A stretch of 41,803 bases of DNA from Dactylosporangium sp. AC04546 (GTDB lineage: Bacteria; Actinomycetota; Actinomycetes; Mycobacteriales; Micromonosporaceae), in contig NZ_JAHYSG010000107.1 of NCBI RefSeq assembly GCF_022095675.1, positions 1 to 41,803 on the forward strand. Direction: 5' to 3'. The first letter of the stretch is position 1; each line of letters starts with the position of its first letter. The notes under the pieces were generated by a model. That model was not told the DNA's origin and did not search any database. It saw only the letters and a program-made list of their open reading frames with translations. The position numbers and the translations under genes are program-made. Shown here piece after piece: positions 3,493 to 25,476 of this stretch.

Positions 3493-3504
3493 CCCCGTGT
3501 CCCC

Positions 3505-7395: not shown

Positions 7396-7421
7396 GCCCC
7401 GGACCGTATGGGCGGGCGCGA

Positions 7422-7472
7422 GTAGCCGGCCACTACCTCAGTTGGCTGCCCGGACGAGTAGTTGCCGGCTGC
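7422..7472. promoter_or_regulatory. Divergent promoter region with an inverted pair of 15-mers
   Basis: GTAGCCGGCCACTAC (7422-7436, plus) and GCAGCCGGCAACTAC (7458-7472, minus) agree at 13 of 15 positions and face each other, 36 bases apart start to start. They sit between the two divergent biosynthetic transcripts. They are candidate binding sites for one of the two cluster LuxR-type regulators. No clear -35/-10 pair was recognised. Confidence 0.5.
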
Positions 7473-7498
7473 TCGGGCCGGTTGCGACGGTGCTGGTC

Positions 7499-9343
7499 AT
7501 GACCGCTTTCGCGTTGCTGTGCCGGGGCCGCGGCGACCGGCTGGAGATCCTCACCGGGCCGCCGGTCGCGGCGGCGTCGGTGGCCGCCCTGCCGACCGCC
7601 GACCGGCCGGTGTTCGCGGCCGTACCGTACCGCCAGATCACCGAGCGCGGGATGCCGTGCGCCGACGACGGGGCGCCACTGCTGGCGTTCAGCGTCGAGC
7701 GGCACACCTCGCTGCCCCTCGCCGCGGCGCTGTCCTGGCTGCCGTCCGACCCCGCCGCTCTGGGCGCCGGCCGCTTCGACCTGGACGACGACGCCTACGC
7801 GGCGCTGGTGCGCGCCGTCGTGGCCGGCGAGATCGGCCGCGGCACGGGCTCGAACTTCGTGCTGCGCCGCACCTTCCGCGCCTCCCTGGGCCCCGATCCG
7901 GCGCGGGCCGCGCTCGCGCTGTTCCGCCGGCTGCTGGTGAGCGAGCGGGGCGCGTACTGGACGTTCCTCGTGCACTGCGAAGGCCGCACCCTCGTCGGGG
8001 CGAGCCCGGAGTGCCAGGCCGGCCTGCGCGCCGGGGTGGCGACGATGAACCCGATCAGCGGCACGTACCGCTACCCGCCCGGCGGCCCCACCGCCGCGGG
8101 CCTGCGCGCGTTCCTCGCCGACCGCAAGGAGTCCGACGAGCTGTTCATGGTCGTCGACGAGGAGCTCAAGACGATGGCCCGGATCTGCGACGGCGGCGGC
8201 CGGGTGCGCGGGCCGTGGCTGCGGCCGATGTCGCGGCTGGCCCACACCGAGTACCGCATCGAGGGCCCGACCCGCCTGGATCCGCGCGCGGTGCTGCTGG
8301 AGACGCTGCCGGCCCCGACGGTCGCCGGCAGCCCGCTTGCGGCCGCCTGCCGGGTGATCGCCGACCACGAGCCGGACGGCCGCGGCTACTACGGCGGCGC
8401 GGTCGCCCTCATCGGCCGCGACTGGCTGGACTCGGCCCTGCTGATCCGCACCGCGGAGATCTCGGCGGACGGGTCGGTGCGGGTCTCGGCGGGCGCCACC
8501 CTGGTCCGCCACTCCGACCCGGCCGCGGAGGCCGCGGAGACCCGCGCCAAGGCGGCCGCCCTGGTGGATCCCCCGCCGTCCGTCAGATACTGGAAGGCTC
8601 CGGCGGGGCCGGCGGACGAGGGGATGGGCACGATGCTGGCGGCGCGCAACGAGGGACTGTCGCGGTTCTGGCGGGGGCTGTCCAGCACCTGGCCGGACGA
8701 GCGCCTGGCCGGGGCGCGGATCCTCGTGGTCGACGCCGAGGACGACTTCACGGCCATGCTGGCCCGGCTGCTCGAGGCGCTCGGGACGGTGGTGCGGGTC
8801 GAGCGGTACGACACCGCCAAGCCCGACGACCACGATGCCGTCGTCCTCGGGCCGGGCCCCGGCGACCCGGGCGACGCGGGCGACCCGCGCATCGCCCGGC
8901 TGCGCGAACTGGCCCGCGAGCGGCTCACGACCGGCGCGCCGCTGCTCGCCGTCTGCCTCGGCCACCAGGTCGTCGCCGCGGAGCTGGGGCTGGCGGTGCG
9001 CCGGCTGCCCCGCCCGGAGCAGGGGGTCCAGCGGGTCGTCGCGCCGTACGGCCGGGTCGGCTTCTACAACACGTTCACCGCGGTCAGCCCGGCCGACGTG
9101 CTGACCAGCCCGCTCACCGGCCGGTCGGTGCGCGTGACGCGCGACCCGGCCACCGGGGTCGTGCACGCGCTGGCGGCGCCCGGGGTACGGTCGATGCAGT
9201 TCCATGTCGAGTCGGTGCTCACCGAGCACGGACCGGCCATCCTGCGGCGCATGCTGGCCGGGGTGCTCGCCCCCGATGCACCCGGAGGTCGACCGAACGG
9301 CTGTAGTCCCCGATCGTCGACGTCACCCAGAATGTGCGCTTGA
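7499..9343 (+). CDS. PhzE-like ADIC/anthranilate synthase, fused synthase and glutaminase
   Basis: 614 residues. The N-terminal two thirds is a chorismate-binding domain (GASPECQ, NPISGT, KESDELFMVVDEELK, YYGGAVALI). The C-terminal third is a class I glutamine amidotransferase with nucleophile Cys486 in CLGHQ and a His-Glu pair in QFHVES. This fused order is that of PhzE, which makes 2-amino-2-deoxyisochorismate, and of fused anthranilate synthases. Pairing with the PhzD-like gene of the same locus favours ADIC. The ATG at 7499 is chosen because the conserved N-terminus starts there; the frame is open further upstream. Its TGA overlaps the next gene's ATG (TGATG). Confidence 0.9.
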   Translation: MTAFALLCRGRGDRLEILTGPPVAAASVAALPTADRPVFAAVPYRQITERGMPCADDGAPLLAFSVERHTSLPLAAALSWLPSDPAALGAGRFDLDDDAYAALVRAVVAGEIGRGTGSNFVLRRTFRASLGPDPARAALALFRRLLVSERGAYWTFLVHCEGRTLVGASPECQAGLRAGVATMNPISGTYRYPPGGPTAAGLRAFLADRKESDELFMVVDEELKTMARICDGGGRVRGPWLRPMSRLAHTEYRIEGPTRLDPRAVLLETLPAPTVAGSPLAAACRVIADHEPDGRGYYGGAVALIGRDWLDSALLIRTAEISADGSVRVSAGATLVRHSDPAAEAAETRAKAAALVDPPPSVRYWKAPAGPADEGMGTMLAARNEGLSRFWRGLSSTWPDERLAGARILVVDAEDDFTAMLARLLEALGTVVRVERYDTAKPDDHDAVVLGPGPGDPGDAGDPRIARLRELARERLTTGAPLLAVCLGHQVVAAELGLAVRRLPRPEQGVQRVVAPYGRVGFYNTFTAVSPADVLTSPLTGRSVRVTRDPATGVVHALAAPGVRSMQFHVESVLTEHGPAILRRMLAGVLAPDAPGGRPNGCSPRSSTSPRMCA

Positions 9344-12072
9344 TGGCGCTGAGGACGTTCGGTCGCGACCGGGAACTGGCCGGCCTGCATGCCGCGGTGG
9401 CCGCGACCACCGCCGGCGCGGGCGGCTGCACCGTGCTCACCGGCTCGGCCGGGATCGGCAAGTCGCACCTGGTCCGGGCGGCCGTCGCGCACGCGGAGGG
9501 CCTCGGGGTGCCGGTCGCCGCGCGGGCCGCGTTCGAGCTGGACCGGGCGGCGCCGCTGGTCACCCTCGCCTCGGCGCTGCAACAGATCCGGCCGCGCAGC
9601 GACGCGTTCAGCTGGCTGCGCGAGGAGCCCGACAACCAGTACCGCACCCTCGAACGCCTCGGGGCCGCCCTGGAGGACCTCACCGACGGCCGCCCACTCG
9701 TGATCGCGATCGACGACGCCCACTGGATGGACGAGCTGTCCGCCCTGGCCGTGCGCGAGCTGGTGCCGGCCCTCGCCGGCGCGCCGGTGCGGTGGGTGTT
9801 CGCCCGCCGGCCCGCTCCCGCCGACACGCCCGGCCAGCAGGTCGTCGACTGGCTGATCAAAGAGGGCGCCGAGCACGTGCGGCTCGGCATGCTCGACGAC
9901 ACGGCGGTCGGGCGGCTGTGCCAGCAGGTCGTCGGCGCGGAGGTCGACAACACCGTGCTCGCCCTGGCCGGCGGCTGCGACGGTATCCCGCTGCAGGTCG
10001 AGCAGCTGCTGCGGGCCCTGCAGGCGACCGACCAGCTGGTGATCAGCGAGGGCGTCGCCACCGTCGTCGGCGACGAGTTGCCGTCGAGCTTCATCACGAT
10101 CGTCGACCAGGTGCTGCGCGGGCTGTCCGACGACACCCGGCTGCTGCTGCGGGCCGGGTCCGTGTTCGGCCGGCCGTTCACCGTCGAGGCCGCCGCCCGG
10201 CTGCTCGGCACCCGGGCCGGCGCGCTGCTGCCCCGGGTCGAGCAGGCCGTCGCCGCGAAGGTGCTGGTCGACAGCGAGGACGGGCTGCAGTTCGTGCACG
10301 ACCTGGTCCGCCTGGCCGTGTACGGCACGATCGGCGAGTCGGTCGGTGCGCTGCTGCACCGCGAGGCCGCGGCCGTCGCCCGCGACGAGGGCCGCTCGCC
10401 GGTCGAGGTCGCCGAGCACCTGCTCAAGAGCGGCCGGGCCGGCACCCGCGAGGCCGTCACCATGCTGCACGAGGCCGCGATGGAGGTGGCCGGGCAGGCC
10501 CCGGCGACCGCGGCCGACCTCATCGTCCGCGCGCTCGGTGTGGTCGGCGAGCACAACCCGGTCCGGGTCCCGCTGGTCGCCGACGCCGTCGGGTTGCTGG
10601 CCTCGGCGAGCCGCCTCGAACAGGCGCACGAGCTGGGCGAGGCGGCGCTGCAGGCCGGCCTGCCGCCGGCCACCGAGGCGACGTTGCTGCACGGGCTCGC
10701 CGACGCGTTCAAGCACGCGGGGCAGAACCGGCGCGCGGTCGAGTACACCGACCGGGGCCTGCGCCACGCCGGCATCCCCGAGGCCGTCAAGGCGAAGCTG
10801 TGGGCCGTCCGGTCGCACGCCCTCTTCTACGTCGGTGATCTCGCCGGGGCCGACGCGGCGGGGCACCAGGGGTACACCAGTGGCCAGAACTCCCAGGAAT
10901 GGGCGGCCTCGGTCTTCGGCCTGACCGCCCGGAGCCTGGTCGCGCAGGCGCAGGGCCGGCCGGCGGACGCGCTCGCCCACGCGCAGGAGGCGACCGACAT
11001 CGCCGACCGGGTGGGTGGCGAGGCCGCGCACCGGCACCCGCGCATCTGGCTCGCCGACACGCTCACCGGGCTGGATCGCTTCGACGAGGCCGACCAGGTC
11101 ATCGCGCGCGGCCGGCAGGAGACCGAGCGGCTCGGCACCGCGTGGTCGGCGCCGCTGTGGCACTACTACCGCACGACGCTGCTCACCGCCCGCGGCCGGC
11201 TCGCCGAGGCGGTCGCCGAGGCCGAGAACGGCGTCGCGCTCGCCGAGCAGCTCACCGCGGTCGCCGCCGCCGTGCCGCTGCTGGGCCAGCTGATCCGGCT
11301 GGCGATCCTGCGGGCCGACGACGACCAGGCGCGGGAGTACCTCGGCCAGCTGCGCTGCCGGGTGGCCACCGGCGCGACCGCGGCTCCCGAGGACATCGTG
11401 TGGCCGGAGGCGTACCTCCAGGACGCGCTCGAAGGCCCCGACGTGGCCCTGCGCACGATCGCCGGGCTGTACGACGCGCTCCCCGACCGGCCGGCGATCG
11501 TCATCCAGCACCCGTGCGCGGCGGCCAGCCTGGTCCGTATCGCCCTCGGCGCCGGCGACCGTTCGCGGGCCGCGGTCGTGGCCGACGTGACCCGGCGCAT
11601 CGCCGACCGCAACCCCGCGCTGCACTCCCTGGCCGGCGCCGCCCTGCACGCGGAGGGCCTGCTGCACGAGGACCACGGCAAGCTGCTCGACGCGGTGGCC
11701 CGCTTCCGCAAGACCCCACGCCCCCTGGCGCTGGCCGGCGCCCTGGAGCACGCCGGCGAGGTCGAGGAGGCGCTCGACCTGGCCACCGAGCACGGCGCGC
11801 ACCGCATGCGGCTGCGCCTGCTCGACCGCCTGGGCGGCCGCCCGCCGGCCCCGGAGCCGCCGCCGTTCCGCCCGGCGTCGCCCCTGGCGCTGCTCACCCC
11901 GGCCGAGCTGAAGGTCGCCCTGCTGGTGGCCGACGGCCACAAGAACCGCGCCGTCGCGGAGCAGCTGTTCCTGTCCCGCCACACGGTCGACAGCCACCTG
12001 CGCAAGATCTTCCAGAAGCTGGACCTGCGCAGCCGCGTCGAACTGGCCGCCCTGATCGCCCGCGAGCGCTGA
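9343..12072 (+). CDS. Large LAL-family LuxR regulator with STAND ATPase
   Basis: About 909 residues. The AAA/STAND NTPase opens with a Walker A GSAGIGKS (about residues 34-41) and a Walker B in LVIAIDDAHW. A winged region and a long helical, TPR-like middle follow. The C-terminus is a LuxR helix-turn-helix (LLTPAELKVALLVADGHKN and VDSHLRKIFQKLDL). LAL proteins are pathway activators in actinomycete metabolite clusters. The ATG at 9343 overlaps the ADIC synthase stop; a GTG at 9334 would add three residues. Co-translation with PhzE suggests a feed-forward loop if it activates the divergent promoter. The ligand is unknown. Confidence 0.9.
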   Translation: MALRTFGRDRELAGLHAAVAATTAGAGGCTVLTGSAGIGKSHLVRAAVAHAEGLGVPVAARAAFELDRAAPLVTLASALQQIRPRSDAFSWLREEPDNQYRTLERLGAALEDLTDGRPLVIAIDDAHWMDELSALAVRELVPALAGAPVRWVFARRPAPADTPGQQVVDWLIKEGAEHVRLGMLDDTAVGRLCQQVVGAEVDNTVLALAGGCDGIPLQVEQLLRALQATDQLVISEGVATVVGDELPSSFITIVDQVLRGLSDDTRLLLRAGSVFGRPFTVEAAARLLGTRAGALLPRVEQAVAAKVLVDSEDGLQFVHDLVRLAVYGTIGESVGALLHREAAAVARDEGRSPVEVAEHLLKSGRAGTREAVTMLHEAAMEVAGQAPATAADLIVRALGVVGEHNPVRVPLVADAVGLLASASRLEQAHELGEAALQAGLPPATEATLLHGLADAFKHAGQNRRAVEYTDRGLRHAGIPEAVKAKLWAVRSHALFYVGDLAGADAAGHQGYTSGQNSQEWAASVFGLTARSLVAQAQGRPADALAHAQEATDIADRVGGEAAHRHPRIWLADTLTGLDRFDEADQVIARGRQETERLGTAWSAPLWHYYRTTLLTARGRLAEAVAEAENGVALAEQLTAVAAAVPLLGQLIRLAILRADDDQAREYLGQLRCRVATGATAAPEDIVWPEAYLQDALEGPDVALRTIAGLYDALPDRPAIVIQHPCAAASLVRIALGAGDRSRAAVVADVTRRIADRNPALHSLAGAALHAEGLLHEDHGKLLDAVARFRKTPRPLALAGALEHAGEVEEALDLATEHGAHRMRLRLLDRLGGRPPAPEPPPFRPASPLALLTPAELKVALLVADGHKNRAVAEQLFLSRHTVDSHLRKIFQKLDLRSRVELAALIARER

Positions 12073-12181: not shown

Positions 12182-12618
12182 GCTCGCCACTCGCCCTCGA
12201 TCATGAGGTCGCGGCCGGGCAGCTCGTTGGCCTCGCGCCAGGCCTGGATCCGCTGCGGGCGGATCCGGAAGTACTCGTAGTCGCGCAGCGTGCGCGGGTC
12301 GAAGCCGGTCTTGGCGGCGAACGCGTCGCCCAGCTCGGCGGTGAGGTCCTCGACCGGCCCGGCGGTGCCCTGGATGAGCACCACGTCGCGGGTCGGGCCG
12401 GCCGCCAGCCGGACCCGCCCGCCGGCCCGCAGGTTGCGGGCCGTCGGGCTGGTCGCGACGGTCGAGATGAGCAGCGTCTCGCCGTCCCAGAGGAACGACA
12501 GCGGTACCAGATATGGCGTCCCCGCGGCGTCCGCGGTGGCGACCCAGGCGTCCTCGTCATGGGCGAGCCGACGCAGCGTGTCGGCGCGGCGCTGCTCGAG
12601 CGACCGTGGCGGGTTCAT
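12178..12618 (-). CDS. PPOX-class (F420- or FMN-dependent) split-barrel oxidoreductase
   Basis: 146 residues. The sequence [20 protein letters not shown] (residues about 33-52), followed by [16 protein letters not shown] and [11 protein letters not shown], is the flavin-binding split barrel of pyridoxamine-phosphate-oxidase-like proteins. The [19 protein letters not shown] end is common in actinobacterial F420-dependent TIGR-type PPOX enzymes. It is probably a cytosolic reductase or oxidase of unknown substrate. The start is set by an ATGA overlap with the DUF1801 gene upstream, and it is third in the VOC-DUF1801-PPOX operon. Confidence 0.85.
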
Positions 12619-13028
12619 CCCGCTGCCTGCTTGACCAGCTCGCCGATGCGCCGCTCGTCGGCAGCGGTCAGCGTCTTGAGCGCGAAGGCGCTCGGCCACA
12701 TGGCGCCGTCGTCGAGGTTGGCCTGGTCGCTGAAGCCGAGCGTGGCATACCGGGCGTTGAACTTCTGGGCGCTCTGGAAGAAGCAGACGATCTTGCCGTC
12801 CTTGGCATAGGCGGGCATCCCGTACCACAGCTTCGGCGTCAGGTCCGGCGCGCTGGCCGTGACGATCGCGTGGATCCGCTCGCCGAGCGCGCGGTCCTCC
12901 GGGAGCATCTCCGCGATCTTGGCCAGGACGTCCTGCGTGGCGGACGCCTTGCCCTTGCGCTGCTTCCTGAGCTCCTGGGCGTGCTCCTTCATGGCGGCCC
13001 GTTCCTCGGCCGAGAAGACACTCGTCAT
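12615..13028 (-). CDS. DUF1801 / YdhG-like protein
   Basis: 137 residues. After a charged helix ([20 protein letters not shown]) comes the DUF1801 pattern: [27 protein letters not shown], then [13 protein letters not shown] (given here as separate motifs). Proteins of this family are small cytosolic folds sometimes described as iron-chaperone-like; the function is not established. The gene lies 30 bases after the VOC gene and overlaps the PPOX gene by 4 bases, so the three are co-transcribed. The ATG at 13028 is the only sensible start. Confidence 0.85.
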
Positions 13029-13058
13029 GGTACTTTTCTCCCTTTTGCGGTTGTTTGG

Positions 13059-13394
13059 TCAGTTGTCCTGGAGCAGGCCGAGCACGTTGCCGTCGGGGTC
13101 GGTGACGGTGGCCACCAGGCGGCCTCCGCCGACGTCCTTGACGCCCTCCTTGACGGTGGCGCCGGCCGCGACGACCTCGGCGAGCCTGGCCTCGATGTCC
13201 GGCACGTGCCAGTACGCGACCGGCGCGGTCATGGCCTGCGGGCCGCCGCCCGGGACCAGCCCGATCTGCTGGCCGTCGGCCTCGAAGCCGACGTAGAAGG
13301 TGCTGTCGGTCTGCGGCGCGGTGCCGAGCAGGGCCGCGTACACCGGCTTGGCGGCGGCAAGATCGGACACGGGGTGCAGGACGGTCTTGATCAT
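13059..13394 (-). CDS. VOC / glyoxalase-like protein
   Basis: 111 residues, one vicinal-oxygen-chelate unit of two beta-alpha-beta-beta-beta modules (IKTVLHPVSDLAAAKPVY; VAYWHVPDIEARLAEVVAAGA; ATVTDPDGNVLGLLQDN). The typical C-terminal metal-ligand Glu is not clear, because the end reads GNVLGLLQ. A binding role, as in resistance-type VOC proteins, is as likely as catalysis. It is first gene of the three-gene minus operon and divergent from the STAND regulator at 13491 across about 96 bases. Confidence 0.85.
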   Translation of the reverse strand: MIKTVLHPVSDLAAAKPVYAALLGTAPQTDSTFYVGFEADGQQIGLVPGGGPQAMTAPVAYWHVPDIEARLAEVVAAGATVKEGVKDVGGGRLVATVTDPDGNVLGLLQDN

Positions 13395-13480
13395 GATCGC
13401 TCCTCGCGAGTCGGGTTGCTGTTCTTGCTGCGGTTCTTGCTGCGTTCTTGCTGGTGAAAGCCTCTCCCGGCGGCTGGGGC

Positions 13481-13499
13481 GGTCACATCCGTGGTGACC
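13481..13499. promoter_or_regulatory. Candidate operator in the divergent VOC/STAND region
   Basis: GGTCAC (13481-13486) and GTGACC (13494-13499) form an inverted repeat with a 7-base spacer, overlapping the possible GTG starts of the HTH-STAND gene. It fits autoregulation by that protein's LuxR-type domain. It is short, so chance is possible. Confidence 0.3.
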
Positions 13500-16220
13500 A
13501 CGGAGCCCACCACTGAGTGGTCCGCGGAATGGGGCAGGATGGAGCCCGTGGTGGCGACGACGGGGATCTCGGGGCGGGAGGCCGAGGTGCTGACCCTGGT
13601 CGGCGAGCACCTGAGCAACGCGGAGATCGGCGCCCGGCTGTACATCTCCGTCCGCACCGTCGAGACCCACGTGTCGTCGCTGCTGCGCAAGCTCGGCGCG
13701 GCCGACCGGCGGGCGCTCGCCCAGCTCGCGGCCGAGTGGGGCCGGGCCGCGCGCGGCGGGCAGGCGGCCTCCGGGCTGCCCGCCCCGGTGACCGCGTTCG
13801 TCGGCCGGGTCCGGGAGCGGGCCGAGCTGGCCGCGGCGATCGCGGCCCACCGGCAGGTCAGCGCGGTCGGCCCGGGCGGGGTCGGCAAGACCCGCCTGGC
13901 CCTCGCCGTGGCCGCCGACGCGGCGGGCGACTTCGCCGACGGGGTGTGGTTCGTCGACCTGGTCCCGATCAGCGACCCCGCGATGGTCGGCGCCGCCGTG
14001 GCCGCCGCCGCGGGCATCGGCGAGCAGCAGGGCCGCGGCATCGACGAGTCGGTGGTGGCCGCGCTGGCCGACCGGCACGCGCTGCTGGTCCTCGACAACT
14101 GTGAGCACGTCCGGGACGGGGTCGCGCCGTTCCTGGAGCGCCTGCTGGTCGGATGCCCGCGGCTGACGGTGCTGGCGACGAGCCGGGCGCGGCTCATGGT
14201 GCCGTTCGAGCGCGTGCATCCGGTACCACCGCTGGATCTGGAATCCGATGCGGTGGACCTGTTCCTCGACCGTGCGGCGGCCGCCGGCTGGCCGGTGCCG
14301 CCGGACCAGCACGACCAGGTCGCCGAGGTCTGCCGGCAGCTGGACGGGGTGGCCCTCGCGATCGAGCTCGCCGCCGCCCGGCTGCCGACGCTGGGCCTCG
14401 ACGGGCTCGCCGCGGTGCTGTCCGACCAGCTGCGCCTGCTGTCCGGCGGGGCGCGGGCGCACGGGCGGCAGCAGTCGGTGCGGGCGATGCTCGACTGGAG
14501 CAACGCCCTGCTGGAGCCGGACGAGCAGACGCTGCTGCGGCGCGTCTCGGTCTTCGCGGCGCCGTTCACCGCCGACGCCGCCGGGCAGGTGGCCGGGTTC
14601 GCCCCGCTGTCGCCGGCCGCGGTCGTCGACGGGCTGTCCCGGCTCACCGAGCAGAGCCTGCTGTCGGCGGCCCCGGCCACGGGCGGGACGCGCTACCGCG
14701 CGCTGGCGACGATCCGGCAGTACGGCTTCTCGCAGCTGTCCACGGCGGGCGAGGTCTCCGCGGTACAGTCCCGGCACTTGGACTGGTGCCTGAAGAGCGC
14801 GCTGTCGTTGCGCGGCAACCCGGCCGACGGGCCGTGGCGGGCCCGGTTCGACGCGGTCGCCGACGACCTGCGGGCGGCGCTCGGCCCGGCGTCCGGCCCG
14901 CCCGCCTACGAACTGGCGTGCGCGCTGGCCGACCTGGCCTTCACCCGCAACCTGGTCGGCGAGGCGCAGCAGCGCTACGAGCAGGCGGCCGCCCTCACCG
15001 ACGACCCGTCGGCGGCCGCGGCGGCACTGCGCTCGGCGGCGGCGGTGGCGGGCTGCCGGCTGCTGGGCGACGACATGTACCGCCTGCATCGAGCGGCCGC
15101 CTCGGTCTCGGGCGCCGCCGCCGACCTGGCGACGGCGGCCATCACCGCGTACCGCTTCTCCGGTGCGTTCACACGCCTCCCCCCACCCGACGAGCCCGTG
15201 GCGCTGCTGGCGTCGGCCCGGTCACTGGCCGGTACCGACGACCCGGCCGTGGCCCTCGCCGAGGCCGCGGTCCTCGCCGACACATTCGGCTCCGACCAGG
15301 GCCCGTCGTCGAACGCGGCCGCCACGACGCTGGCCGCGGCCACCCGGGCGGTCGACCTGGCCCGCGCGGCGTCCGACCCGCTCGCCGTCTCGGCCGCCCT
15401 GGACGGCCTGGCCGGCGCCCAGAGCTGGTCGGGCGACAGCTTCGGCGCGGCCGCCACGGCCCGGGGCCGCATCGAGCTGCTCTCATCGGTACCGGTGACG
15501 CCGGCGAGCATGCACGAACTGACCGACGCCCTGGTCTCCGGCATCGACACCGCCCTGGGCGTAGGTGACATCCCGACCGCCCGGCAGTGGGCCCTACGCC
15601 TGGCCGAGCTGCCGCTGCTGGCCGAGGTCGGCCACTACGGGGTGTCGTGGCTCCTCATGACGGACGCCCTGGCCGGCTCGGTGTCCCCGGCGATGTCCGC
15701 GCGCTTCCTGGAGGCCTGGGAGCGCACGGGCCGCCTGCGGGCCCCGCGCCTGGCCGCCACGGCCGCTGCGGTGGCGATGGTCCACGGCCTGCAGGGCGCT
15801 TCCCGAGACACCTGGTTGTCGATCGCAGACGACCTCGGCGCGACCCCGGAGCGCAGCACGGGCTACGGGGCGGTCTTCGACGCCATCTACCTGCTGCACC
15901 ACGACCGCCCGGCGGAGGCGCTGGACCGCCTGTCCCCGGAGCCCGCCGACGTGTGGAAGTGGGTGACGTGGATCTGGCTGCACTGGTACGTGTCCCTGCG
16001 CGCGGAGGCAGCGGTCCTGGCCGGCCATCCCGAGGCCCGCTCGTGGATCGCGGACGCCCGCAAGGTGGTGGCGAGCAACCCGATCGCCGTCGCGCAGCTG
16101 GACCGGGCGGAGGCTCTGCTCGACGGTGACCGCGACCGGGTGCTGGCCACGGCGGCGGCCTTCGAGGCGGCCGGCTGCCAGTACCAGCAGTCCCGGACCC
16201 GCACGCTGGCCGGGGAGTGA
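13491..16220 (+). CDS. LuxR-HTH / NB-ARC-like STAND ATPase / helical-repeat protein
   Basis: 909 residues with the reverse domain order of LAL proteins. The LuxR helix-turn-helix is first (ISGREAEVLTLVGEHLSNAE to VETHVSSLLRKLGA, about 26-70). Then comes a STAND ATPase with Walker A GPGGVGKT at 127-134, Walker B LLVLDN at 198-203, an R-finger-like TSRARL and a winged region, followed by about 450 residues of TPR-like helices. Such proteins sense a signal through the repeats and switch with ATP. The stop is 4 bases before the CHAT-dynamin gene, so they form one unit. GTG 13491, GTG 13494 or ATG 13539 could be the start; all keep every domain. Confidence 0.88.
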   Translation: MVTTEPTTEWSAEWGRMEPVVATTGISGREAEVLTLVGEHLSNAEIGARLYISVRTVETHVSSLLRKLGAADRRALAQLAAEWGRAARGGQAASGLPAPVTAFVGRVRERAELAAAIAAHRQVSAVGPGGVGKTRLALAVAADAAGDFADGVWFVDLVPISDPAMVGAAVAAAAGIGEQQGRGIDESVVAALADRHALLVLDNCEHVRDGVAPFLERLLVGCPRLTVLATSRARLMVPFERVHPVPPLDLESDAVDLFLDRAAAAGWPVPPDQHDQVAEVCRQLDGVALAIELAAARLPTLGLDGLAAVLSDQLRLLSGGARAHGRQQSVRAMLDWSNALLEPDEQTLLRRVSVFAAPFTADAAGQVAGFAPLSPAAVVDGLSRLTEQSLLSAAPATGGTRYRALATIRQYGFSQLSTAGEVSAVQSRHLDWCLKSALSLRGNPADGPWRARFDAVADDLRAALGPASGPPAYELACALADLAFTRNLVGEAQQRYEQAAALTDDPSAAAAALRSAAAVAGCRLLGDDMYRLHRAAASVSGAAADLATAAITAYRFSGAFTRLPPPDEPVALLASARSLAGTDDPAVALAEAAVLADTFGSDQGPSSNAAATTLAAATRAVDLARAASDPLAVSAALDGLAGAQSWSGDSFGAAATARGRIELLSSVPVTPASMHELTDALVSGIDTALGVGDIPTARQWALRLAELPLLAEVGHYGVSWLLMTDALAGSVSPAMSARFLEAWERTGRLRAPRLAATAAAVAMVHGLQGASRDTWLSIADDLGATPERSTGYGAVFDAIYLLHHDRPAEALDRLSPEPADVWKWVTWIWLHWYVSLRAEAAVLAGHPEARSWIADARKVVASNPIAVAQLDRAEALLDGDRDRVLATAAAFEAAGCQYQQSRTRTLAGE

Positions 16221-16224
16221 GGCG

Positions 16225-18366
16225 GTGGCCGTCTTCGAGGTCGCGATCTGGCCGCACCGAGACTCCGGCACGAGGTTCCGCGTCGACGTCGTACGCTCCG
16301 AGGTCGGCGAGGCCTCGACCATGGTCGAGCTGGAACTGGCGGCGCTGTCCGGGAAGCGCGCCCAGGTGCAGCAGGCGCTGCTGGCCTCGGCCGTGCGGAC
16401 CTCGCCGCTGGTGCAGGACGTCGGTGCGGAACTGTTCACCGCGCTGCTGGGCAGCGGCGCGGTCGCCGGCCGGTACCGCTCGGCCGTCGACGTCGCCCGG
16501 GCCCGCGACGAGGAACTGCGGCTCGTCGTGCGCGTCGAGTCCCCGCTGCTGGCGGGGCTGCCCTGGGAGGCCATGTACGACTCGGAGCTGCACGGATACG
16601 TGTGTCGCCAGCGGCAGCTCGTCCGGCACGTGGCGGTACCGTCGCTGCCGTTCCCGCTGCTCGTTCCGCCACCGCTGCGCGTGCTCGGCGTCGTCTCGGC
16701 ACCGCGCGGACTCCCCGCCCTGAACGCCGCGCGGGAGCGGGCCCAGCTCGAACGCGCGCTGGAACGGCCGATCCGCGACGGTTTCGTCGAGGTGCACTGG
16801 GCGGCGGCCGCCACCTGGGCCGAACTGCAGGACCTGCTGATGGACGGCCCCTGGCACGTGCTGCACTACATCGGCCACGGCGCCTTCGATCCCGTCCTCG
16901 ACCAGGGCGTCCTCGCCCTGGAGCACAGCGGCGGCGGGGTCGACCGGGTCGATGCCGCCCGGCTCGCCGACCTGCTCGGCCAGGCCTGCCCGATGCCCCG
17001 GTTGGTCGTCCTCAACTCCTGCTCGGGCGCGGCCACCGGCGGTCACGACCTGTTCTCCGGTACCGCTGCCACGCTCGTCCGCGCCGGGGTGAGCGCGGCC
17101 GTGGCCATGCAGTACGAGATCTCCGACGGCGCGGCGGTCGCGTTCGCCCGGGGCTTCTACGCCGCCGTCGCCCGCGGCCGCGGGGTCGACCAGGCCGTGA
17201 CCGCCGGGCGGGTCGCGGTCCTCGGCACCAGCCCGACCACGCTTGAGTGGGTCAACCCGGTGCTGTATCTGCGGGGCGAGCGCACGCACCTCTTCGACGT
17301 CGCCGCCCGGCCGGCGGCGACGGTGGCTCGCTCCGCCGTACCCTCCCACCCACAGCAACCGAGCGTCGTCGTGATCGCACCGTCGAAGGCCGGGAGGTCG
17401 ACGCTCATCAACGCGATCATCGGGCGCGAGCTACTGCCGGCACGACCGCAGGCGATGACGACCCTGCCCACCCGGATACTCCTTACCGACGGTCCAGGCG
17501 AGCCGCGGCTGACGCTCTCCGAGCACGACGCGATGGTCCTGGCGTACGTCGCCGGGACCCTGCGGCCGGACGTCGCGGCGCGCTTCGAGTCGCTCACCGA
17601 CGAGTACCGCCACCTAGGAGACCTTCTGGTGCGCCTGCGGGACGGCCGACTCCCGGTGCGGTCGACGTACACCGGGACCGCCGACATCCGGCGCGGCCTG
17701 ACCGACATCAACGACCTGGTCCGCCTCGCGCAGCGCCTGCACCGCGACCGCGACATGATCGACGCCCTCGACGACGTCCCGGCGCTGCGGACCTCGTCCT
17801 GGCTCCATCCGCAGCTCGGGCAGTTCTCCTGCATCGACATGCCCGGCCCCGACGAGGGCATCCCGTTCCCCCTGGCCCGGGACCGGGCGAGGCTGCTGCG
17901 CACCAGCGACGCGGTGCTGCTCGTCCTCGACTTCGGCAACCTCGGCTCCAACGTCGAGTGGTTCGCCAAGCGCCTGCTGGAGCAGGTCGGCCCCGACCGG
18001 CTGCTCGTGGTCGTGAACAAGGTCGACCAGCGCCGCCGGGGGGACCTCGATCGGTACGGCGTCCGCGATTTCGTGCGGACGGCCCTGGGTTCGGAGCGGG
18101 TGTTCGAAACGTGGGCCTCGCTCGCGTTCGTGGGCGCCCGGGCACTGGCCGAGATACGGCGCGAGGGGGCCGCGTTCGACGTCCGGAAAAGCCCCGCCGC
18201 GGCCGGACTCATCAACACGGTGTACCCGTTCCGCGAGGACGCCGCCGAAGCGCTCCGGGACTGGACCCCCGACCGGCTCACCCGGCACGCGCAGCGGGCC
18301 TGGGACAAATCCGGCGTGCCGGAGCTCCTGGCCGCACTCGCGCAGTCGCTCGCGGACCGCCCCTGA
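16225..18366 (+). CDS. CHAT protease-dynamin GTPase fusion
   Basis: 713 residues with two parts. Residues 1-355 form a CHAT (caspase-like) peptidase with His218 in HYIGHGAF and Cys266 in VLNSCSGA, preceded by a beta-rich N-terminal region. Residues 380-710 form a bacterial dynamin-type GTPase. Its G1 loop is APSKAGRST at 385-393 (Lys replaced by Arg391), switch TTLPT at 412-416, G3 DMPG at 538-541 and G4 NKVD at 598-601. No membrane helix or long stalk follows. The GTG start lies 4 bases after the STAND gene with GGGAG upstream. CHAT proteases and dynamins both occur in bacterial conflict systems, so I infer a STAND-controlled effector that cleaves a target, perhaps at membranes. Confidence 0.9.
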   Translation: MAVFEVAIWPHRDSGTRFRVDVVRSEVGEASTMVELELAALSGKRAQVQQALLASAVRTSPLVQDVGAELFTALLGSGAVAGRYRSAVDVARARDEELRLVVRVESPLLAGLPWEAMYDSELHGYVCRQRQLVRHVAVPSLPFPLLVPPPLRVLGVVSAPRGLPALNAARERAQLERALERPIRDGFVEVHWAAAATWAELQDLLMDGPWHVLHYIGHGAFDPVLDQGVLALEHSGGGVDRVDAARLADLLGQACPMPRLVVLNSCSGAATGGHDLFSGTAATLVRAGVSAAVAMQYEISDGAAVAFARGFYAAVARGRGVDQAVTAGRVAVLGTSPTTLEWVNPVLYLRGERTHLFDVAARPAATVARSAVPSHPQQPSVVVIAPSKAGRSTLINAIIGRELLPARPQAMTTLPTRILLTDGPGEPRLTLSEHDAMVLAYVAGTLRPDVAARFESLTDEYRHLGDLLVRLRDGRLPVRSTYTGTADIRRGLTDINDLVRLAQRLHRDRDMIDALDDVPALRTSSWLHPQLGQFSCIDMPGPDEGIPFPLARDRARLLRTSDAVLLVLDFGNLGSNVEWFAKRLLEQVGPDRLLVVVNKVDQRRRGDLDRYGVRDFVRTALGSERVFETWASLAFVGARALAEIRREGAAFDVRKSPAAAGLINTVYPFREDAAEALRDWTPDRLTRHAQRAWDKSGVPELLAALAQSLADRP

Positions 18367-18439
18367 ACCGACCTCCGCCTCACGCGCTCGACGTCGACAA
18401 GGCCGCCGTCATCGCCCGATGCGACACCACCGACGACGC

Positions 18440-18469
18440 GATGGCCGCCGGAGCAGTCCGGCGGCCATC
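18440..18469. terminator. Bidirectional terminator hairpin
   Basis: GATGGCCGCCGGA (18440-18452), GCAG loop, then TCCGGCGGCCATC (18457-18469) form a perfect 13-bp stem between the convergent CHAT-dynamin and TetR-like genes. There is no U-tract, as is common in actinobacteria. Confidence 0.8.
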
Positions 18470-18504
18470 GGTCACGGTACGGCGGCGGCACCCCCCAGGC
18501 GACG

Positions 18505-19113
18505 CTATACCGTGCGGCGCAGGCGCTCCGTGATGACAGCGGCCGCGCGCACCGCGGCGACGCGGCCGTGCATCAGGACCATCAGGTCCTCCACGGCGCA
18601 CGCCGGCGGCGTGTACTCGAGGGCGGCGGCCAGGTGCGGGTGGCGCTTCGCCCAGGCGGTCAGGGAGCGGGTGAGGGCTTCTTCCATCGCGTGCGGCGGG
18701 CGCGGCGCGGAGGCGAAGGCGGCCAGGAGGCGCTCCCGGTACGGCCAGTACGACCATACCTTCGTCTCGTCCACCAGCTGGGCGACGGCGTCGTTGCGCT
18801 GGTACACGAGGGCGAGCTGGATCGAGTCCACGCGCCCGTCGCGGATCAGGTCGTCGATCAGCGGGTGGCGGGCGTGCGCACCGGCGACTTCGTAAAACGT
18901 GCTGCGGCTGCCGCGCGGCTGGGCCGCGTCGACGATGCTCTTCCACGTCAGCGGGGCGCCCGGGGCCGACTCCACCAGACCGGCCACCGCCAGGAAGTAA
19001 ATCGTCTTCGTGCGCCAATGGCTGCGCTTGGCGGACGGGTTGCTGGACAGCCGACGGTGCCACCGTCCGATGACGGTGTTGCCGAGTTCCGGAGTGGTGA
19101 TCGCGAGTGTCAT
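18505..19113 (-). CDS. TetR-like helix-turn-helix protein
   Basis: 202 residues. A likely N-terminal helix-turn-helix (TWKSIVDAAQPRGSRSTFYEVAG, here spanning residues 56-78) resembles the TetR recognition helix ending STFYE. An all-helical C-terminal part would bind a ligand. Family assignment is tentative. Its ATG overlaps the stop of the upstream flavin monooxygenase (ATGA), so it probably reports on or represses that gene. It ends just before the 13-bp bidirectional hairpin. Confidence 0.65.
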   Translation of the reverse strand: MTLAITTPELGNTVIGRWHRRLSSNPSAKRSHWRTKTIYFLAVAGLVESAPGAPLTWKSIVDAAQPRGSRSTFYEVAGAHARHPLIDDLIRDGRVDSIQLALVYQRNDAVAQLVDETKVWSYWPYRERLLAAFASAPRPPHAMEEALTRSLTAWAKRHPHLAAALEYTPPACAVEDLMVLMHGRVAAVRAAAVITERLRRTV

Positions 19114-20816
19114 CGGTCGGGCCCCTTGTCGATGGCGCTTACGTGGATCGAGCGTCTCCTGACGGACGAGCGAGGGCATGACGTATTCACGTGGTCTTCC
19201 CTCAGCGCAGTGGTGCCGGCCAGCGAAGATCCGCCGACCACGTGGGTGAGGACGGCGTCCCAGTCGTCCGGCGGCGCCGCCGCGCGCCAGGCAACGTGCT
19301 GGTCAGGCCGCACCAGGACGAGCGGACGATCCCAGCTCCGCAGTACCGCCGGATCCCCCGAAGGCAGGTGAGCCATGGGAATGCCGCGTCGCCGGGCCTG
19401 GTCGACCAGCCGCCCGCCCGAGCCCCCTTCGGTCAGGTCGACCAGGGTGAGTTCCGACCCCAGCCGGTCGAAAAGCTGGGTTCCGTCGGCCAGTCGGACA
19501 GCCGGGGCCCGTCCGCCCGGCCACGTGGTGGGCGTGATGCGGTGGCCGTTGCGAGAGGGTGGCGTCCCCCGGTCGTGCCAGATGACTGCCGATTCGGCGT
19601 ACCGCCCGGCGAACTGGATGCCCATCGGGTCGAGCCGGTGCGTCTCCTGGTGCAGCACGCCGGCCAGGAACTCCCGCGACGCCCCGGCCGCGGCGAGCCG
19701 GCCGAAGCGGCGCCGGGTCTCCAGCGCGCGGGCCAGCAGCTCGCGGTCCATGAGGGCGCGCGGGCGCCGCTCCAGCTCGTAGCTGGCCAGCAGGCCCGGC
19801 CCGCCCCACCCGCACAGCACGGCGGCGAGCTTCCAGCCGAGGTCGACGGCGTCACCGATGCTCGTGTCGGCGTTGTCGGTGACGGGGTGGAACCGGTGCG
19901 CGGCCTCCCCCACCAGGAAGACGGACCCACGCCGGTACTGCGCGGCGACCGCGAGCGAGTCGTCCCACTGCGTGACCCCGAAGACCTCCGGCTTGGCGAG
20001 GGCGGCGCCGAGCCGGCTGCGTAACATCGCCACCGGGTCGGTGGTGAGCGGCTCGTCCGCGCCGACCGGCAGCTGCCCGACCCAGCCGTTGCGCTCGTCG
20101 CGCGCCACCAGCGTCAGCCCGCCGACCACGATCGTCGACAGCGCCCGCCCGCGCGGATGCAGGTGCGGGTCTTCGCTGCGGAAGTACACCGAGCAGTGCG
20201 GCGCCGGCAGCCCGAGCTGCTCCATCGGCACGTCGAGGCTGCGCCGCACGGTGCTCTGCGCGCCGTCGCACCCGGCGACGTACCGCGCCTCGACCGTGTG
20301 CCGGACCCCGCCGCGCACCTCGAGCACGCTCGCGGCCACGCCGTCCTCGTCGACCCGCAGCCCGGTGAACGTCCACCCCTCGCGCAGCTCGATGAGCGGA
20401 TGCTCGCGCACCGCGTCGCGCAGCCGCTTGGCCAGCCGCGCGCCGGGCACCCGCAGGTGCAGCTCGACGGGCGCGCTGCCGTCGTTGACCTGCGCGTAGC
20501 GCCCGCGGAGCTGGTTCACCGACGGGTAGTGCGAGACGAGCACGGGCGGCTGGTCGAGCCCCTGCCGCCACTCGTAGTCGCTGGGGGAGTCCGGATCGAC
20601 GCCGAGCTCCCGGACCTCCGCGGCGAGCCCGAGCCGCCGCAGCAGCTCCATGCTGCGCCCGGTGAGCAGGTCGAGGTCGGGATGCTTGGGCTCGGTGAGC
20701 GACCGCTCCACGACCACGCACCCCACCCCGTGGTGCGCCAGTTCCAGCGCGAGGACCGCCCCGACCACGCCGGCCCCGACGACGAGCACCTCGGTCCGCA
20801 GTGACGACGCTGCCAC
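19110..20816 (-). CDS. FAD-dependent monooxygenase, PheA/TfdB or rifampicin-monooxygenase type
   Basis: 568 residues in the long class A hydroxylase subgroup. FAD site VVGAGVVG is near 12-19, followed by VVERS and DLLTGRSMELLRRLGL. The DG motif is in VAGCDGAQSTVRR, and the GD motif appears as GEAAHRFHP, with Glu for the usual Asp. A C-terminal thioredoxin-like region ends in RPLVLVRPDQHVAWR. These enzymes hydroxylate polyketides, phenols or antibiotics such as rifampicin. The GTG at 20816 is preferred for its GGGGGAGG site 4-5 bases upstream; an ATG at 20852 would add 12 residues. The downstream TetR-like gene suggests an inducible detoxification or tailoring pair. Confidence 0.88.
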   Translation of the reverse strand: MAASSLRTEVLVVGAGVVGAVLALELAHHGVGCVVVERSLTEPKHPDLDLLTGRSMELLRRLGLAAEVRELGVDPDSPSDYEWRQGLDQPPVLVSHYPSVNQLRGRYAQVNDGSAPVELHLRVPGARLAKRLRDAVREHPLIELREGWTFTGLRVDEDGVAASVLEVRGGVRHTVEARYVAGCDGAQSTVRRSLDVPMEQLGLPAPHCSVYFRSEDPHLHPRGRALSTIVVGGLTLVARDERNGWVGQLPVGADEPLTTDPVAMLRSRLGAALAKPEVFGVTQWDDSLAVAAQYRRGSVFLVGEAAHRFHPVTDNADTSIGDAVDLGWKLAAVLCGWGGPGLLASYELERRPRALMDRELLARALETRRRFGRLAAAGASREFLAGVLHQETHRLDPMGIQFAGRYAESAVIWHDRGTPPSRNGHRITPTTWPGGRAPAVRLADGTQLFDRLGSELTLVDLTEGGSGGRLVDQARRRGIPMAHLPSGDPAVLRSWDRPLVLVRPDQHVAWRAAAPPDDWDAVLTHVVGGSSLAGTTALREDHVNTSCPRSSVRRRSIHVSAIDKGPDR

Positions 20817-20916
20817 CGGCCTCCCCCAATCCCCGAACGACACAGCCCTCATGCTCGTCGGGGTTGGGGGTGCCGCACATCACGGCAATACGTGGTTTCG
20901 CTTTCCGCCCGCGGCC

Positions 20917-21306
20917 TTACTCCCGGGCGGCGCGCACCGCCGTGACCACGGCTGCGAGGACGTTGACCAGGCCGGACACGATGAGCGACCCGGCCGAGAA
21001 CCCGACCTTCCCGGTGTTCTCGACCGCGAGCAGCAGCGCGTACCCGGCGCAGACGACGGCCGGCACCAGCAGCCCGAGCGCTACGAGCCGGCTCCGCGCG
21101 AACTTCCGCCACACGAGTAGGGCGAGCCCGAGGTACCCGACCCCGGTGAGCACCGCCAACCAGCCGGCCAGCGCCCCCGCCACGGTGGGGTCGACCCCGT
21201 AGTGGTCGAGCTGGTCCCGGGCGTCAAAGATCCGGAACCCGAGCCACCCGAAGAGCAACCCGGCGATGACCGCTGTCCACATCAGCCGCCCGTCAGACTC
21301 CGTCAT
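20917..21306 (-). CDS. Four-helix membrane protein
   Basis: 129 residues with four hydrophobic segments: about 9-25 (MWTAVIAGLLFGWLGF), 44-65 (AGWLAVLTGVGYLGLALLVW), 74-93 (LVALGLLVPAVVCAGYALLL) and 104-125 (AGSLIVSGLVNVLAAVVTAV). Short charged links join them. No family or catalytic residue is recognised. It stands alone, upstream of the flavin monooxygenase on the same strand, about 100 bases apart. Confidence 0.75.
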   Translation of the reverse strand: MTESDGRLMWTAVIAGLLFGWLGFRIFDARDQLDHYGVDPTVAGALAGWLAVLTGVGYLGLALLVWRKFARSRLVALGLLVPAVVCAGYALLLAVENTGKVGFSAGSLIVSGLVNVLAAVVTAVRAARE

Positions 21307-21366
21307 ATCGACGATCGTAGAGAGGTCTGGTCAGGTCCCAGCGGCGAATCCTCCCGTCCATGTCGC

Positions 21367-21534
21367 TCAGCTCGGCACCTTGGTGAGCGCGACGTGGTTC
21401 CCGCGCAGCTCGCCGACCATCGCGAACCCGGACCGGTCGATGTCGCAACAGAACGGCAGGTCCCGGGACAGGTCGACGCGGTCGGCCGCGGGCAGCCAGG
21501 CGGCAGTGCGGACGTGCTCGCCCGCGCCGGCCAT
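21367..21534 (-). CDS. Small ORF of 55 codons or gene remnant
   Basis: The frame from an ATG at 21534 reads MAGAGEHVRTAAWLPAAD, then DRSGFAMVGELRGNHVALTKVPS, with coding-like third-position GC. The frame is open upstream without another start back to the stop of the 21607 gene, through a short Asp-Gly repeat. I do not recognise the family. It may be a fourth gene of the MerR-thioredoxin unit or the tail of a broken gene. Confidence 0.35.
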   Translation of the reverse strand: MAGAGEHVRTAAWLPAADRVDLSRDLPFCCDIDRSGFAMVGELRGNHVALTKVPS

Positions 21535-21606
21535 GATGCCGGCCGCGAGCTCCGCGCCGTCCGGCGCCGAGCCGTCGCCGTCGCCGTCGATCCGCCGTCG
21601 ATCGCG

Positions 21607-21903
21607 TCAGAGGAGGTCGAACAGCGTTTCGACTCGGGCGGTCAGGACCGGGTCGAGGTCGCCTGCCACGCGGATGCTCACCACGCTGCCGCCGTCGGCC
21701 CGGGCGAGGGACACCTCCAATGGAGGCTTGCCCGACAGCGGGTAGGTGAACCAGCCGCCGGGCGCCTCGTCGTCGGTGTCCTCGAGGGCGCCCGTCAGCG
21801 CCACCTCGTCCAGGTCGTCGTACGCGTAGCCGGTGTAGTGGCTCACGTGCTCCAGGAACCGGACCACGTTGTCCTCGAACACCCAGCCCTCGATCGTGCT
21901 CAT
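21607..21903 (-). CDS. Small hypothetical acidic protein
   Basis: 98 residues, acidic, with a mixed alpha/beta look (WVFEDNVVRFLEHVSHYTGY; WFTYPLSGKPPLEVSLARA; VVSIRVAGDL; ARVETLFDLL). No cysteine, membrane segment or known motif is seen. It overlaps the thioredoxin gene by 4 bases (ATGA) and so is third in a MerR-thioredoxin operon. It could be a redox partner or client of the thioredoxin, which is a guess from position only. Confidence 0.75.
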   Translation of the reverse strand: MSTIEGWVFEDNVVRFLEHVSHYTGYAYDDLDEVALTGALEDTDDEAPGGWFTYPLSGKPPLEVSLARADGGSVVSIRVAGDLDPVLTARVETLFDLL

Positions 21904-22214
21904 AACGCCGCGTCGAGCTGTTCCTTGAGCTTCGACTTCGGGCGGGCGCCCACCACCTGGGAGACCACCTCACCGCCGCGGAAGACCGTCAGGGTGGGCA
22001 TCGACAGGACGCCGTAGCGGCGGACCGTCTCCGGGTTGTGGTCGGCGTCGAGCTTCACGATCTTCGCCCGGCCCTCGTACTCCTGGGACAGCTCGTCCAG
22101 CACCGGCGCGATCCGGTGGCACGGAGGGCACCACTCCGCCCAGAAGTCCACCAGGACCGGCACGTCGCTGGCGAGCACCTCGTCGGCGAAGGTCTGGTCG
22201 GTCACGGCCCTCAT
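21900..22214 (-). CDS. trxA: Thioredoxin
   Basis: 104 residues, a single classical thioredoxin domain. The active site WCPPC at 28-32 has Pro in the position where common thioredoxins have Gly. DFWAEW precedes it, KLDADHN sits mid-domain and the cis-Pro loop is SMPTLTVF. It is cytosolic, with no signal peptide. It is second in the operon with overlaps on both sides, directly behind a cysteine-containing MerR regulator, which suggests a redox-stress module distinct from the housekeeping trxA. Confidence 0.93.
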   Translation of the reverse strand: MRAVTDQTFADEVLASDVPVLVDFWAEWCPPCHRIAPVLDELSQEYEGRAKIVKLDADHNPETVRRYGVLSMPTLTVFRGGEVVSQVVGARPKSKLKEQLDAAL

Positions 22215-22570
22215 TGTTCCTCCTCAATGGCCTGTTCGAATTCACTGCGCACGAGGTCGCGGACGGCCTGCAGCCGGGCGATGCAGCTGTCCAGGTCGGC
22301 GAGCTTCCGGCTGAGCACCTCGATCGACGCCGGGCACTCGGCGCCGGACGCGCGGCCGGAGCGCAGGCACTCGACGAACGGGCGGGTGTCCTCCAGGTTG
22401 AAGCCGATGTCGAGCAGTGAGCGGATCTCCCGCACGAGCCGGAGGTCACGTTCGTCGTACTCGCGGTAGCCGTTGGTGGTCCGCCGGGCCTCGATCAGCC
22501 CGTGCTGCTCGTAGTAGCGCAGCGTCCGGGCGCTCGTCCCGGCCCGCTCCGCCAGCTCCCCGATGCGCAT
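22211..22570 (-). CDS. MerR-family redox-type regulator
   Basis: 119 residues. The N-terminal winged helix (IGELAERAGTSARTLRYYEQ) and dimer helix are typical of MerR. Cysteines at 68 (FVECLRSG), 79 (AECPAS) and 96 (LDSCIA) lie in the effector region. The spacing is not the SoxR iron-sulphur cluster, so thiol sensing is possible. It is first gene of the MerR-thioredoxin-98-residue operon. A perfect 20-bp palindrome lies 15 bases upstream of the start, as expected for autoregulation. Confidence 0.9.
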   Translation of the reverse strand: MRIGELAERAGTSARTLRYYEQHGLIEARRTTNGYREYDERDLRLVREIRSLLDIGFNLEDTRPFVECLRSGRASGAECPASIEVLSRKLADLDSCIARLQAVRDLVRSEFEQAIEEEQ

Positions 22571-22584
22571 GCAGCAACGGTAAA

Positions 22585-22604
22585 CCTTGACGCCGGCGTC
22601 AAGG
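22585..22604. promoter_or_regulatory. MerR operator: perfect 20-bp palindrome
   Basis: CCTTGACGCCGGCGTCAAGG is self-complementary over all 20 bases and contains TTGACG on the minus strand, a good -35. It lies 15 bases upstream of the MerR gene. The family binds such dyads within the promoter spacer. A convincing -10 was not identified. Confidence 0.8.
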
Positions 22605-22720
22605 CCAGCGTCAGCTCGCCGCGACGAACGTGACGATCACCTCGGCCGGCCGGCCGGCCGCTGCCGCCGCGGGTGCCAAGGCCAGCGTCAGCTCGCGGCG
22701 ACGAACGCGACGATCGCCTC
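22600..22720. repeat. 44-base direct repeat duplicating the dehalogenase 3' end
   Basis: Bases 22600-22643 and 22677-22720 match at 41 of 44 positions. The second copy is the true end of the dehalogenase gene (VAFVAAS then stop). The first encodes a near-identical tail (VTFVAAS then stop) and adjoins the MerR palindrome. It marks a past tandem duplication or recombination. Confidence 0.85.
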
Positions 22721-23584: not shown

Positions 23585-23736
23585 GGCGGCCACGGTACCG
23601 AAGGGGGCGTACCACTGGGGCAACACGGAGACGCCGGCGCGCACCGTCGTCACCGTCTCACGCCGTGTCATCGACACACCTCGCGAACCCGGCCGGCGGT
23701 ACCGAACGACTAGTCTTTCGGCCAGGGGGAGGACCG

Positions 23737-25384: not shown

Positions 25385-25476
25385 GTCAACTGTCGTTTAT
25401 GGGTCCCCCGCTCCCGTAAATCTCAGTTAATGTGGAGGCTTCCACCGCGAGGGTGGGATTGTCAAGGGTTGATGCC

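What the first reader, a model, noticed from the sequence alone, without database searches (positions are those of the whole stretch)
13491..18366. HTH-STAND sensor paired with a CHAT protease-dynamin GTPase fusion
Two genes 4 bases apart encode a LuxR-HTH/NB-ARC-like ATPase/helical-repeat protein and a single polypeptide joining a CHAT caspase-like protease (His218, Cys266) to a bacterial dynamin GTPase (APSKAGRST, DMPG, NKVD). STAND ATPases, CHAT proteases and dynamins each occur in bacterial antiphage or cell-death systems. I do not know of a characterised system with a CHAT-dynamin fusion under a cognate HTH-STAND switch. A model is a sensor that both controls transcription and gates a protease acting at membranes.
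Basis: partly seen in the sequence, partly recalled or inferred. Interest (0 to 1): 0.9.

Follow-up and report, generated by a model that had tools for sequence, protein, structure and literature searches.

The report
Lone CHAT-dynamin fusion beside common regulator
A bacterial gene joins a caspase-like protease domain to the head of a dynamin-type GTPase, a combination not seen in the related sequences searched here, but the regulator gene next to it is an ordinary neighbour and not a conserved partner.

Summary
Gene A (13491-16220) is a LuxR-HTH/STAND-type regulator. Gene B (16225-18366, 4 bases later) joins a CHAT domain (Pfam E 2e-27) to a Dynamin_N GTPase (E 1.7e-7). His218 and Cys266 are invariant in B and 33 aligned relatives.

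The proposed cognate pair does not hold. In a syntenic congener, gene A (89% identical) is present without B. In the window, B lies in a 2.2-kb insertion at the edge of a rearranged, mostly inverted block. None of 12 other gene-A-family loci has B (11 have 7 kb or more downstream), and none of 24 CHAT loci (23 distinct) has a separate HTH-STAND gene.

The membrane model is weak: B has only the G domain, and its P-loop lysine is arginine.

The fusion looks like a singleton: 0 of 119 listed CHAT relatives match dynamin, and no other spanning match was reported in sampled genomes, plasmids or phages. Elsewhere the CHAT half is fused to WD40, kinase, STAND and other domains.

Best reading: a horizontally acquired modular CHAT protease with a dynamin-type head as its regulatory or sensing part, behind an unrelated regulator.

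The parts
13491..16220 (+). Gene A: LuxR-HTH/STAND-type regulator, 909 aa; member of a common actinobacterial family, not a conserved partner of B
13569..13730 (+). GerE/LuxR helix-turn-helix of gene A (residues 27-80)
16225..18366 (+). Gene B: CHAT-dynamin GTPase fusion, 713 aa
16504..17238 (+). CHAT domain of B (residues 94-338)
   Evidence: AlphaFold model of residues 1-370, pLDDT 89.7; PDB fold matches SAVED-CHAT, TPR-CHAT, separase
16876..16878 (+). His218 codon, predicted catalytic, invariant in 34 aligned rows (B and 33 relatives)
17020..17022 (+). Cys266 codon, predicted catalytic, invariant in 34 aligned rows (B and 33 relatives)
17365..18021 (+). Dynamin_N GTPase domain of B (residues 381-599)
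   Evidence: AlphaFold model of residues 366-713, pLDDT 85.1
17395..17397 (+). Arg391 codon in the P-loop (SKAGRST); Lys in 13 of 15 aligned rows
16189..18431 (+). Segment not aligned with the syntenic congener (last ~30 bases of A, all of B, ~65 bases): insertion
18432..21577 (-). Neighbouring block (FAD monooxygenase and flanking small genes), inverted and partly reordered relative to the congener
13059..13394 (-). VOC/glyoxalase gene, divergent from gene A and recurring beside it (5 of 12 A loci)

Best explanation
Gene B is a horizontally acquired, self-contained CHAT (caspase-like) protease of a modular family. Its N-terminal CHAT module is joined to many alternative partner domains; here the partner is the G domain of a dynamin-like GTPase. 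I think the G domain is the sensing or regulatory part: nucleotide-dependent or partner-dependent pairing of heads would bring CHAT domains together or release them, so that they cut a protein target, probably in a stress or defence response. Shown: the two domains, the conserved His/Cys pair, the G-domain-only dynamin part, the altered P-loop, the insertion behind gene A, and the absence of the pair elsewhere in what I searched. Inferred: protease activity, gating by the G domain, biological role, and horizontal origin. Gene A is an unrelated regulator whose transcript B may share by position.
For: Pfam domains. H218 and C266 invariant in 34 rows. All 119 listed relatives carry the CHAT half (N-terminal in 107) and 0 of 119 match dynamin even at E<=10. 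Their partner domains include WD40, thioredoxin, TIR and kinase (accessions and source names; the names of some accessions are recalled). Dynamin half stops after the G domain. Good models of each half with fold matches to SynDLP, mitofusin and BDLP and to SAVED-CHAT, TPR-CHAT and separase. B absent from the syntenic site in a congener. No CHAT-half match reported at E<=1e-30 in the 6 other genomes of the genus. B's codon adaptation (0.667) is second lowest of 13 window genes.
Against: No second CHAT-dynamin protein, so selection on the fusion cannot be shown. The P-loop Lys-to-Arg change makes GTP hydrolysis doubtful. No defence gene was recognised by Pfam among 22 window proteins. CHAT-fold proteins can act otherwise than as proteases: the anti-sigma factor DdvA is among the fold matches; that it lacks peptidase activity is recalled.
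Confidence: 0.55

Rival explanations
1. One reading: A and B are a cognate two-gene system in which the HTH-STAND protein senses, controls transcription and gates the CHAT-dynamin effector at membranes.
For: 4-base gap and same strand, so co-transcription is likely.
Against: Syntenic congener has A and no B. B in 0 of 12 A-family loci; a separate HTH-STAND gene in 0 of 24 CHAT loci, 23 distinct. Gene A's family had 6643 hits among 7987 scored candidates and 14 matches in this genome at E<=1e-40. G domain only.
Confidence: 0.07
2. The dynamin head is an integrated decoy or docking part: it pairs with the cell's own tandem dynamin proteins and triggers the CHAT protease when they are disturbed, without needing its own GTP hydrolysis.
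For: Own genome has tandem dynamin genes at C1 and C75, 30-37% identical to B's head. B keeps the G domain only, with an altered P-loop.
Against: No direct evidence of interaction. Decoy logic is borrowed from plant NLR immunity (recalled).
Confidence: 0.15
3. The G domain is a working GTP switch despite the Arg, and B acts by GTP-dependent head dimerisation.
For: DMPG and NKVD motifs present; the G domain models well.
Against: P-loop Lys-to-Arg. The only other Arg row of the 15 also has an altered G3 (PCPDE for PGPDE), suggesting decay.
Confidence: 0.18
4. B is a chance or assembly-made fusion, or a decaying gene.
For: Singleton; lies at the edge of a rearranged block.
Against: Intact 713-codon frame with GC3 0.93. 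The same protein is listed on a 13,083,175-base contig, longer than the whole 348-contig assembly searched here (13,024,294 bases), so very likely from a second, complete assembly.
Confidence: 0.05

Closest known systems
Proteins with the same N-terminal CHAT module (CHAT-WD40, CHAT-kinase, CHAT-thioredoxin and others)
   Same: CHAT half 49-69% identical among the 119 listed; usually N-terminal (107 of 119); same His and Cys in the 33 aligned with B
   Different: None of the 119 listed has a dynamin match
SAVED-CHAT filament protease (PDB 8tl0)
   Same: CHAT domain; best PDB sequence match (E 9e-13) and best fold match; PADLOC SAVED_CHAT model matches the CHAT region
   Different: Pfam finds no SAVED sensor in B, only CHAT and GTPase models at E<=1; a dynamin head follows the CHAT domain instead
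TPR-CHAT protease of type III-E CRISPR (Craspase)
   Same: CHAT fold
   Different: TPR and CRISPR effector instead of a dynamin head; no CRISPR family among the 22 window proteins scanned with Pfam
SynDLP and other bacterial dynamin-like proteins
   Same: G-domain fold; SynDLP chains are the top three PDB matches
   Different: SynDLP has BSE and stalk domains (passages of PMC10104851); B has the G domain only
LuxR-STAND regulators (gene A family, e.g. P0129 of Dactylosporangium sucinum, 89%)
   Same: Gene A is an ordinary member
   Different: No difference seen

Membership tests
CHAT family (PF12770) | Pfam CHAT profile above cut-off | tested here: met
   96.8 bits against 24
CHAT family (PF12770) | Catalytic His and Cys | tested here: met
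   H218, C266 invariant in 34 rows; that these are the catalytic pair is from knowledge of the family
CHAT family (PF12770) | Proteolytic activity | not testable with these tools
   needs a bench assay
Dynamin superfamily | Dynamin_N profile and G-domain fold | tested here: met
   31.8 bits against 27; fold matches
Dynamin superfamily | P-loop lysine (GKS/T) | tested here: not met
   Arg391; Lys in 13 of 15 rows
Dynamin superfamily | Neck/BSE and stalk for assembly and membrane action | tested here: not met
   B has CHAT before the G domain and stops after it; relatives have long helical regions after it (first-type genes) or before it (second genes of tandem pairs)
Dynamin superfamily | Membrane remodelling | not testable with these tools
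   needs a bench assay
HTH-STAND regulator family (gene A) | LuxR HTH | tested here: met
   GerE E 6e-13
HTH-STAND regulator family (gene A) | STAND/NB-ARC profile above cut-off | tested here: inconclusive
   Matches below cut-off; Walker motifs readable
Cognate STAND switch + CHAT effector operon | Conserved co-occurrence of the two genes | tested here: not met
   0 of 12 A loci, 0 of 24 CHAT loci (23 distinct); congener without B
SAVED-CHAT | SAVED sensor domain | tested here: not met
   Pfam lists only CHAT, Dynamin_N and MMR_HSR1 at E<=1

The most novel reading that the evidence does not exclude
A caspase-like CHAT protease directly gated by a dynamin-type G domain, either as a GTP switch or as an integrated decoy that watches the cell's own tandem dynamins: a new sensor class for CHAT proteases.
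Probability: 0.2. Interest if true: 0.6.

Novelty: new variant of a known kind. Interest (0 to 1): 0.33.

Why it matters
CHAT proteases act in several bacterial immune systems (recalled; SAVED-CHAT and Craspase papers seen as listings), and the partner domain probably sets what triggers them. A dynamin G domain in that place would be a new kind of trigger, linking proteolysis to the state of a GTPase or of the membrane machinery. As a singleton in one lineage it is at present an isolated architecture; the conserved pair that would have made it a system is not there.

Tried and rejected
Cognate A-B operon: rejected on synteny and co-occurrence. Membrane-acting protease: only the G domain is present. 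Plasmid or phage carriage: 44 plasmid records and 1 phage record match, none covers 80% of B; the 20 plasmid records listed and the phage record match one half only. Target-site duplications or long repeats at the insertion edges: only matches of 8-10 bases. Prior report of CHAT with dynamin: 'CHAT domain' + 'dynamin' + 'bacteria' gave one paper, on picocyanobacterial genomes (listing only). 'CHAT domain' + 'GTPase' + 'caspase' gave three; one, PMC8406250 on HetF, was seen in passages, no 'dynamin'. 'CHAT domain' + 'WD40' + 'actinobacteria' gave none. Kaur 2020 and Kaur 2021 (eLife, passages only) do not hold the word 'dynamin' in the main text. Searches were seen as listings; of the mBio DynA phage paper (PMC8844932) only the abstract and outline. 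Most subscription journals are not in the library.

Limits. each scored only about 8000 candidates sharing most words; searches list the best 120. Genome searches 9, 31 and 33 sampled Actinomycetota only, share some genomes, used E limits of 1e-30 or 1e-20, and scored only the top 2-3 first-look candidates in the genomes whose rows I saw. Of the 12 gene-A loci, L085 has 26 bases downstream, L090 holds a partial gene, L088 is a paralogue from the own genome, and the less similar ones may be paralogues too. Insertion of B is by parsimony; which orientation of the neighbouring block is ancestral is not settled. In one search, a weak 32-base hit (16663-16694, E 0.001) falls inside the inserted segment; I take it as chance. 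Alignment A1 mixed the two halves badly and was not used. Only the halves were modelled, not the whole protein or a complex.

Full report
What is there. The window is contig C107 (1-41803) of a 13.0-Mb genome in 348 contigs. The best named hits of gene A are Dactylosporangium proteins (P0129, 89%; P0133, 76%), so the genome is probably of that genus (inference). Gene A (13491-16220) has an N-terminal LuxR HTH and readable Walker motifs; Pfam's STAND/NB-ARC matches are below cut-off. Gene B (16225-18366, 713 aa) has CHAT at 94-338 and Dynamin_N at 381-599.

The CHAT half is a modular unit. A search with B found 1133 proteins at E<=1e-3 among 7995 scored candidates, of which 120 were listed. Besides B itself, all 119 listed carry the CHAT half, starting within the first 60 residues in 107, and none matches dynamin even at E<=10. 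Their precomputed Pfam accessions and source names point to WD40, thioredoxin, TIR, kinase, subtilase and caspase C14 partners (some accession names recalled). ORFs fetched from relatives and read by eye show WD40 repeats (L036, L037), kinase (L042, L043), STAND plus helical repeats (L039), RCC1-like repeats (L047) and membrane segments (L021, L040).

The dynamin half. A search with residues 365-713 gave 6 proteins: B and five dynamin proteins without a CHAT annotation, one named as from Limnoraphis robusta. The own genome has dynamin genes in tandem at C1 and at C75, 30-37% identical to B's head. B has CHAT in front of the G domain and stops just after it. Relatives are of two layouts (coordinates): in the first genes of the tandems about 370-385 residues follow the matched G domain (L033, L034, L046, L048), as also in the longer database proteins; in partner genes (L033, L046, L048) the G domain is C-terminal with roughly 400-480 residues before it and only a short tail. 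So a short tail is not peculiar to B, but the absence of both long helical regions is. B's head is closer to the first type (best tblastn scores 173, 149 and 136 bits in L046, L048 and L033, against 64-102 for the C-terminal type). In the P-loop B has Arg391; 13 of 15 aligned rows have Lys, and the other Arg row, the second gene of L046, also has an altered G3. Models of the halves are confident (pLDDT 85.1 and 89.7). Foldseek finds SynDLP, mitofusin, BDLP and IniA for the head, and SAVED-CHAT, TPR-CHAT and separase for the CHAT half.

Is the fusion found elsewhere? Apart from the window's own, no match spanning both halves was reported in 354 genomes of the family at E<=1e-30 (13 with any match), 397 of the order at E<=1e-20 (11 with a match) and 396 of the phylum at E<=1e-20 (10 with a match). 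These samples overlap, and only the top 2-3 first-look candidates were scored in the rows shown. In the 111 loci held, 64 ORFs match CHAT and 22 match dynamin (some loci overlap, so some ORFs count twice); the only ORFs with both are the window's own, in L001 and L049. 44 plasmid records and 1 phage record match, none over 80% of B. So the fusion is a singleton in what I could search.

Is A the partner of B? Gene A belongs to a very common family: 6643 hits among 7987 scored candidates; 33 of 41 genomes with a match at E<=1e-40, with 14 matches in the own genome, itself included. In congener G106 the site is syntenic (PNPOx, DUF1801, VOC, A at 89%, then the FAD monooxygenase block) without B. 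Nucleotide alignment with it: window 12202-16188 collinear at 88%; 16189-18431 unaligned except for a 32-base hit at E 0.001; 18432-20899 aligned at 92% in inverted orientation; 20928-21279 and 21364-21577 also inverted but in swapped order; 21609-22615 and 23632-25882 collinear again. So B sits in a ~2.2-kb insertion at the edge of a rearranged block. Of 12 gene-A-family loci none has a B match at E<=0.01; 11 have more than 7 kb downstream. Of 24 CHAT loci (23 distinct; 19 with at least 3.5 kb upstream) none has a separate HTH-STAND gene at E<=1e-3. L036 and L043 have a LuxR-HTH-only match (in L036 within a response-regulator-like frame about 500 bases upstream of the CHAT gene), and L039 has a STAND domain inside the CHAT ORF. 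Gene A's recurring neighbour is the divergent VOC gene (5 of 12 loci).

Surroundings. Pfam on 20 further window proteins shows mainly metabolic, transport and regulatory genes, three without any match, and none that I recognise as defence. PADLOC was run on A and B only: B matches SAVED_CHAT in the CHAT part (E 7e-16), and the other matches are weak. B's codon adaptation to the other window genes is 0.667 (CHAT half 0.708, dynamin half 0.625), second lowest of 13 genes, in line with acquisition but not proof.

Conclusion. The system it proposed is not supported: A and B are neighbours by what looks like a lineage-specific insertion. What remains is a new domain combination in a known modular protease family, with an untested and probably unusual GTPase head.

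Noticed in passing
window 2500-12072: A chorismate-binding/GATase enzyme, 3-dehydroquinate synthase II, DeoC-type aldolase, amidohydrolase, FAD-binding enzyme and a LAL-type regulator lie together (Pfam); this looks like part of an aromatic natural-product cluster.
   Followed up: no
window 22616-23631: The alpha/beta hydrolase gene (22688-23677) falls largely in a second segment without match in the syntenic congener.
   Followed up: no
L046:9378-16671: Three dynamin-like genes in a row in a related actinobacterium; the middle one has an altered P-loop (GRT) and G3 (PCPDE), suggesting decay.
   Followed up: partly
window 18440-18469: Perfect inverted repeat (13-base arms) at the edge of the rearranged block, with a matching stretch in the congener; may be a terminator that took part in the rearrangement.
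   Followed up: no
L040:9097-12517: A CHAT gene with a 562-aa gene ending 4 bases upstream on the same strand, not identified.
   Followed up: no
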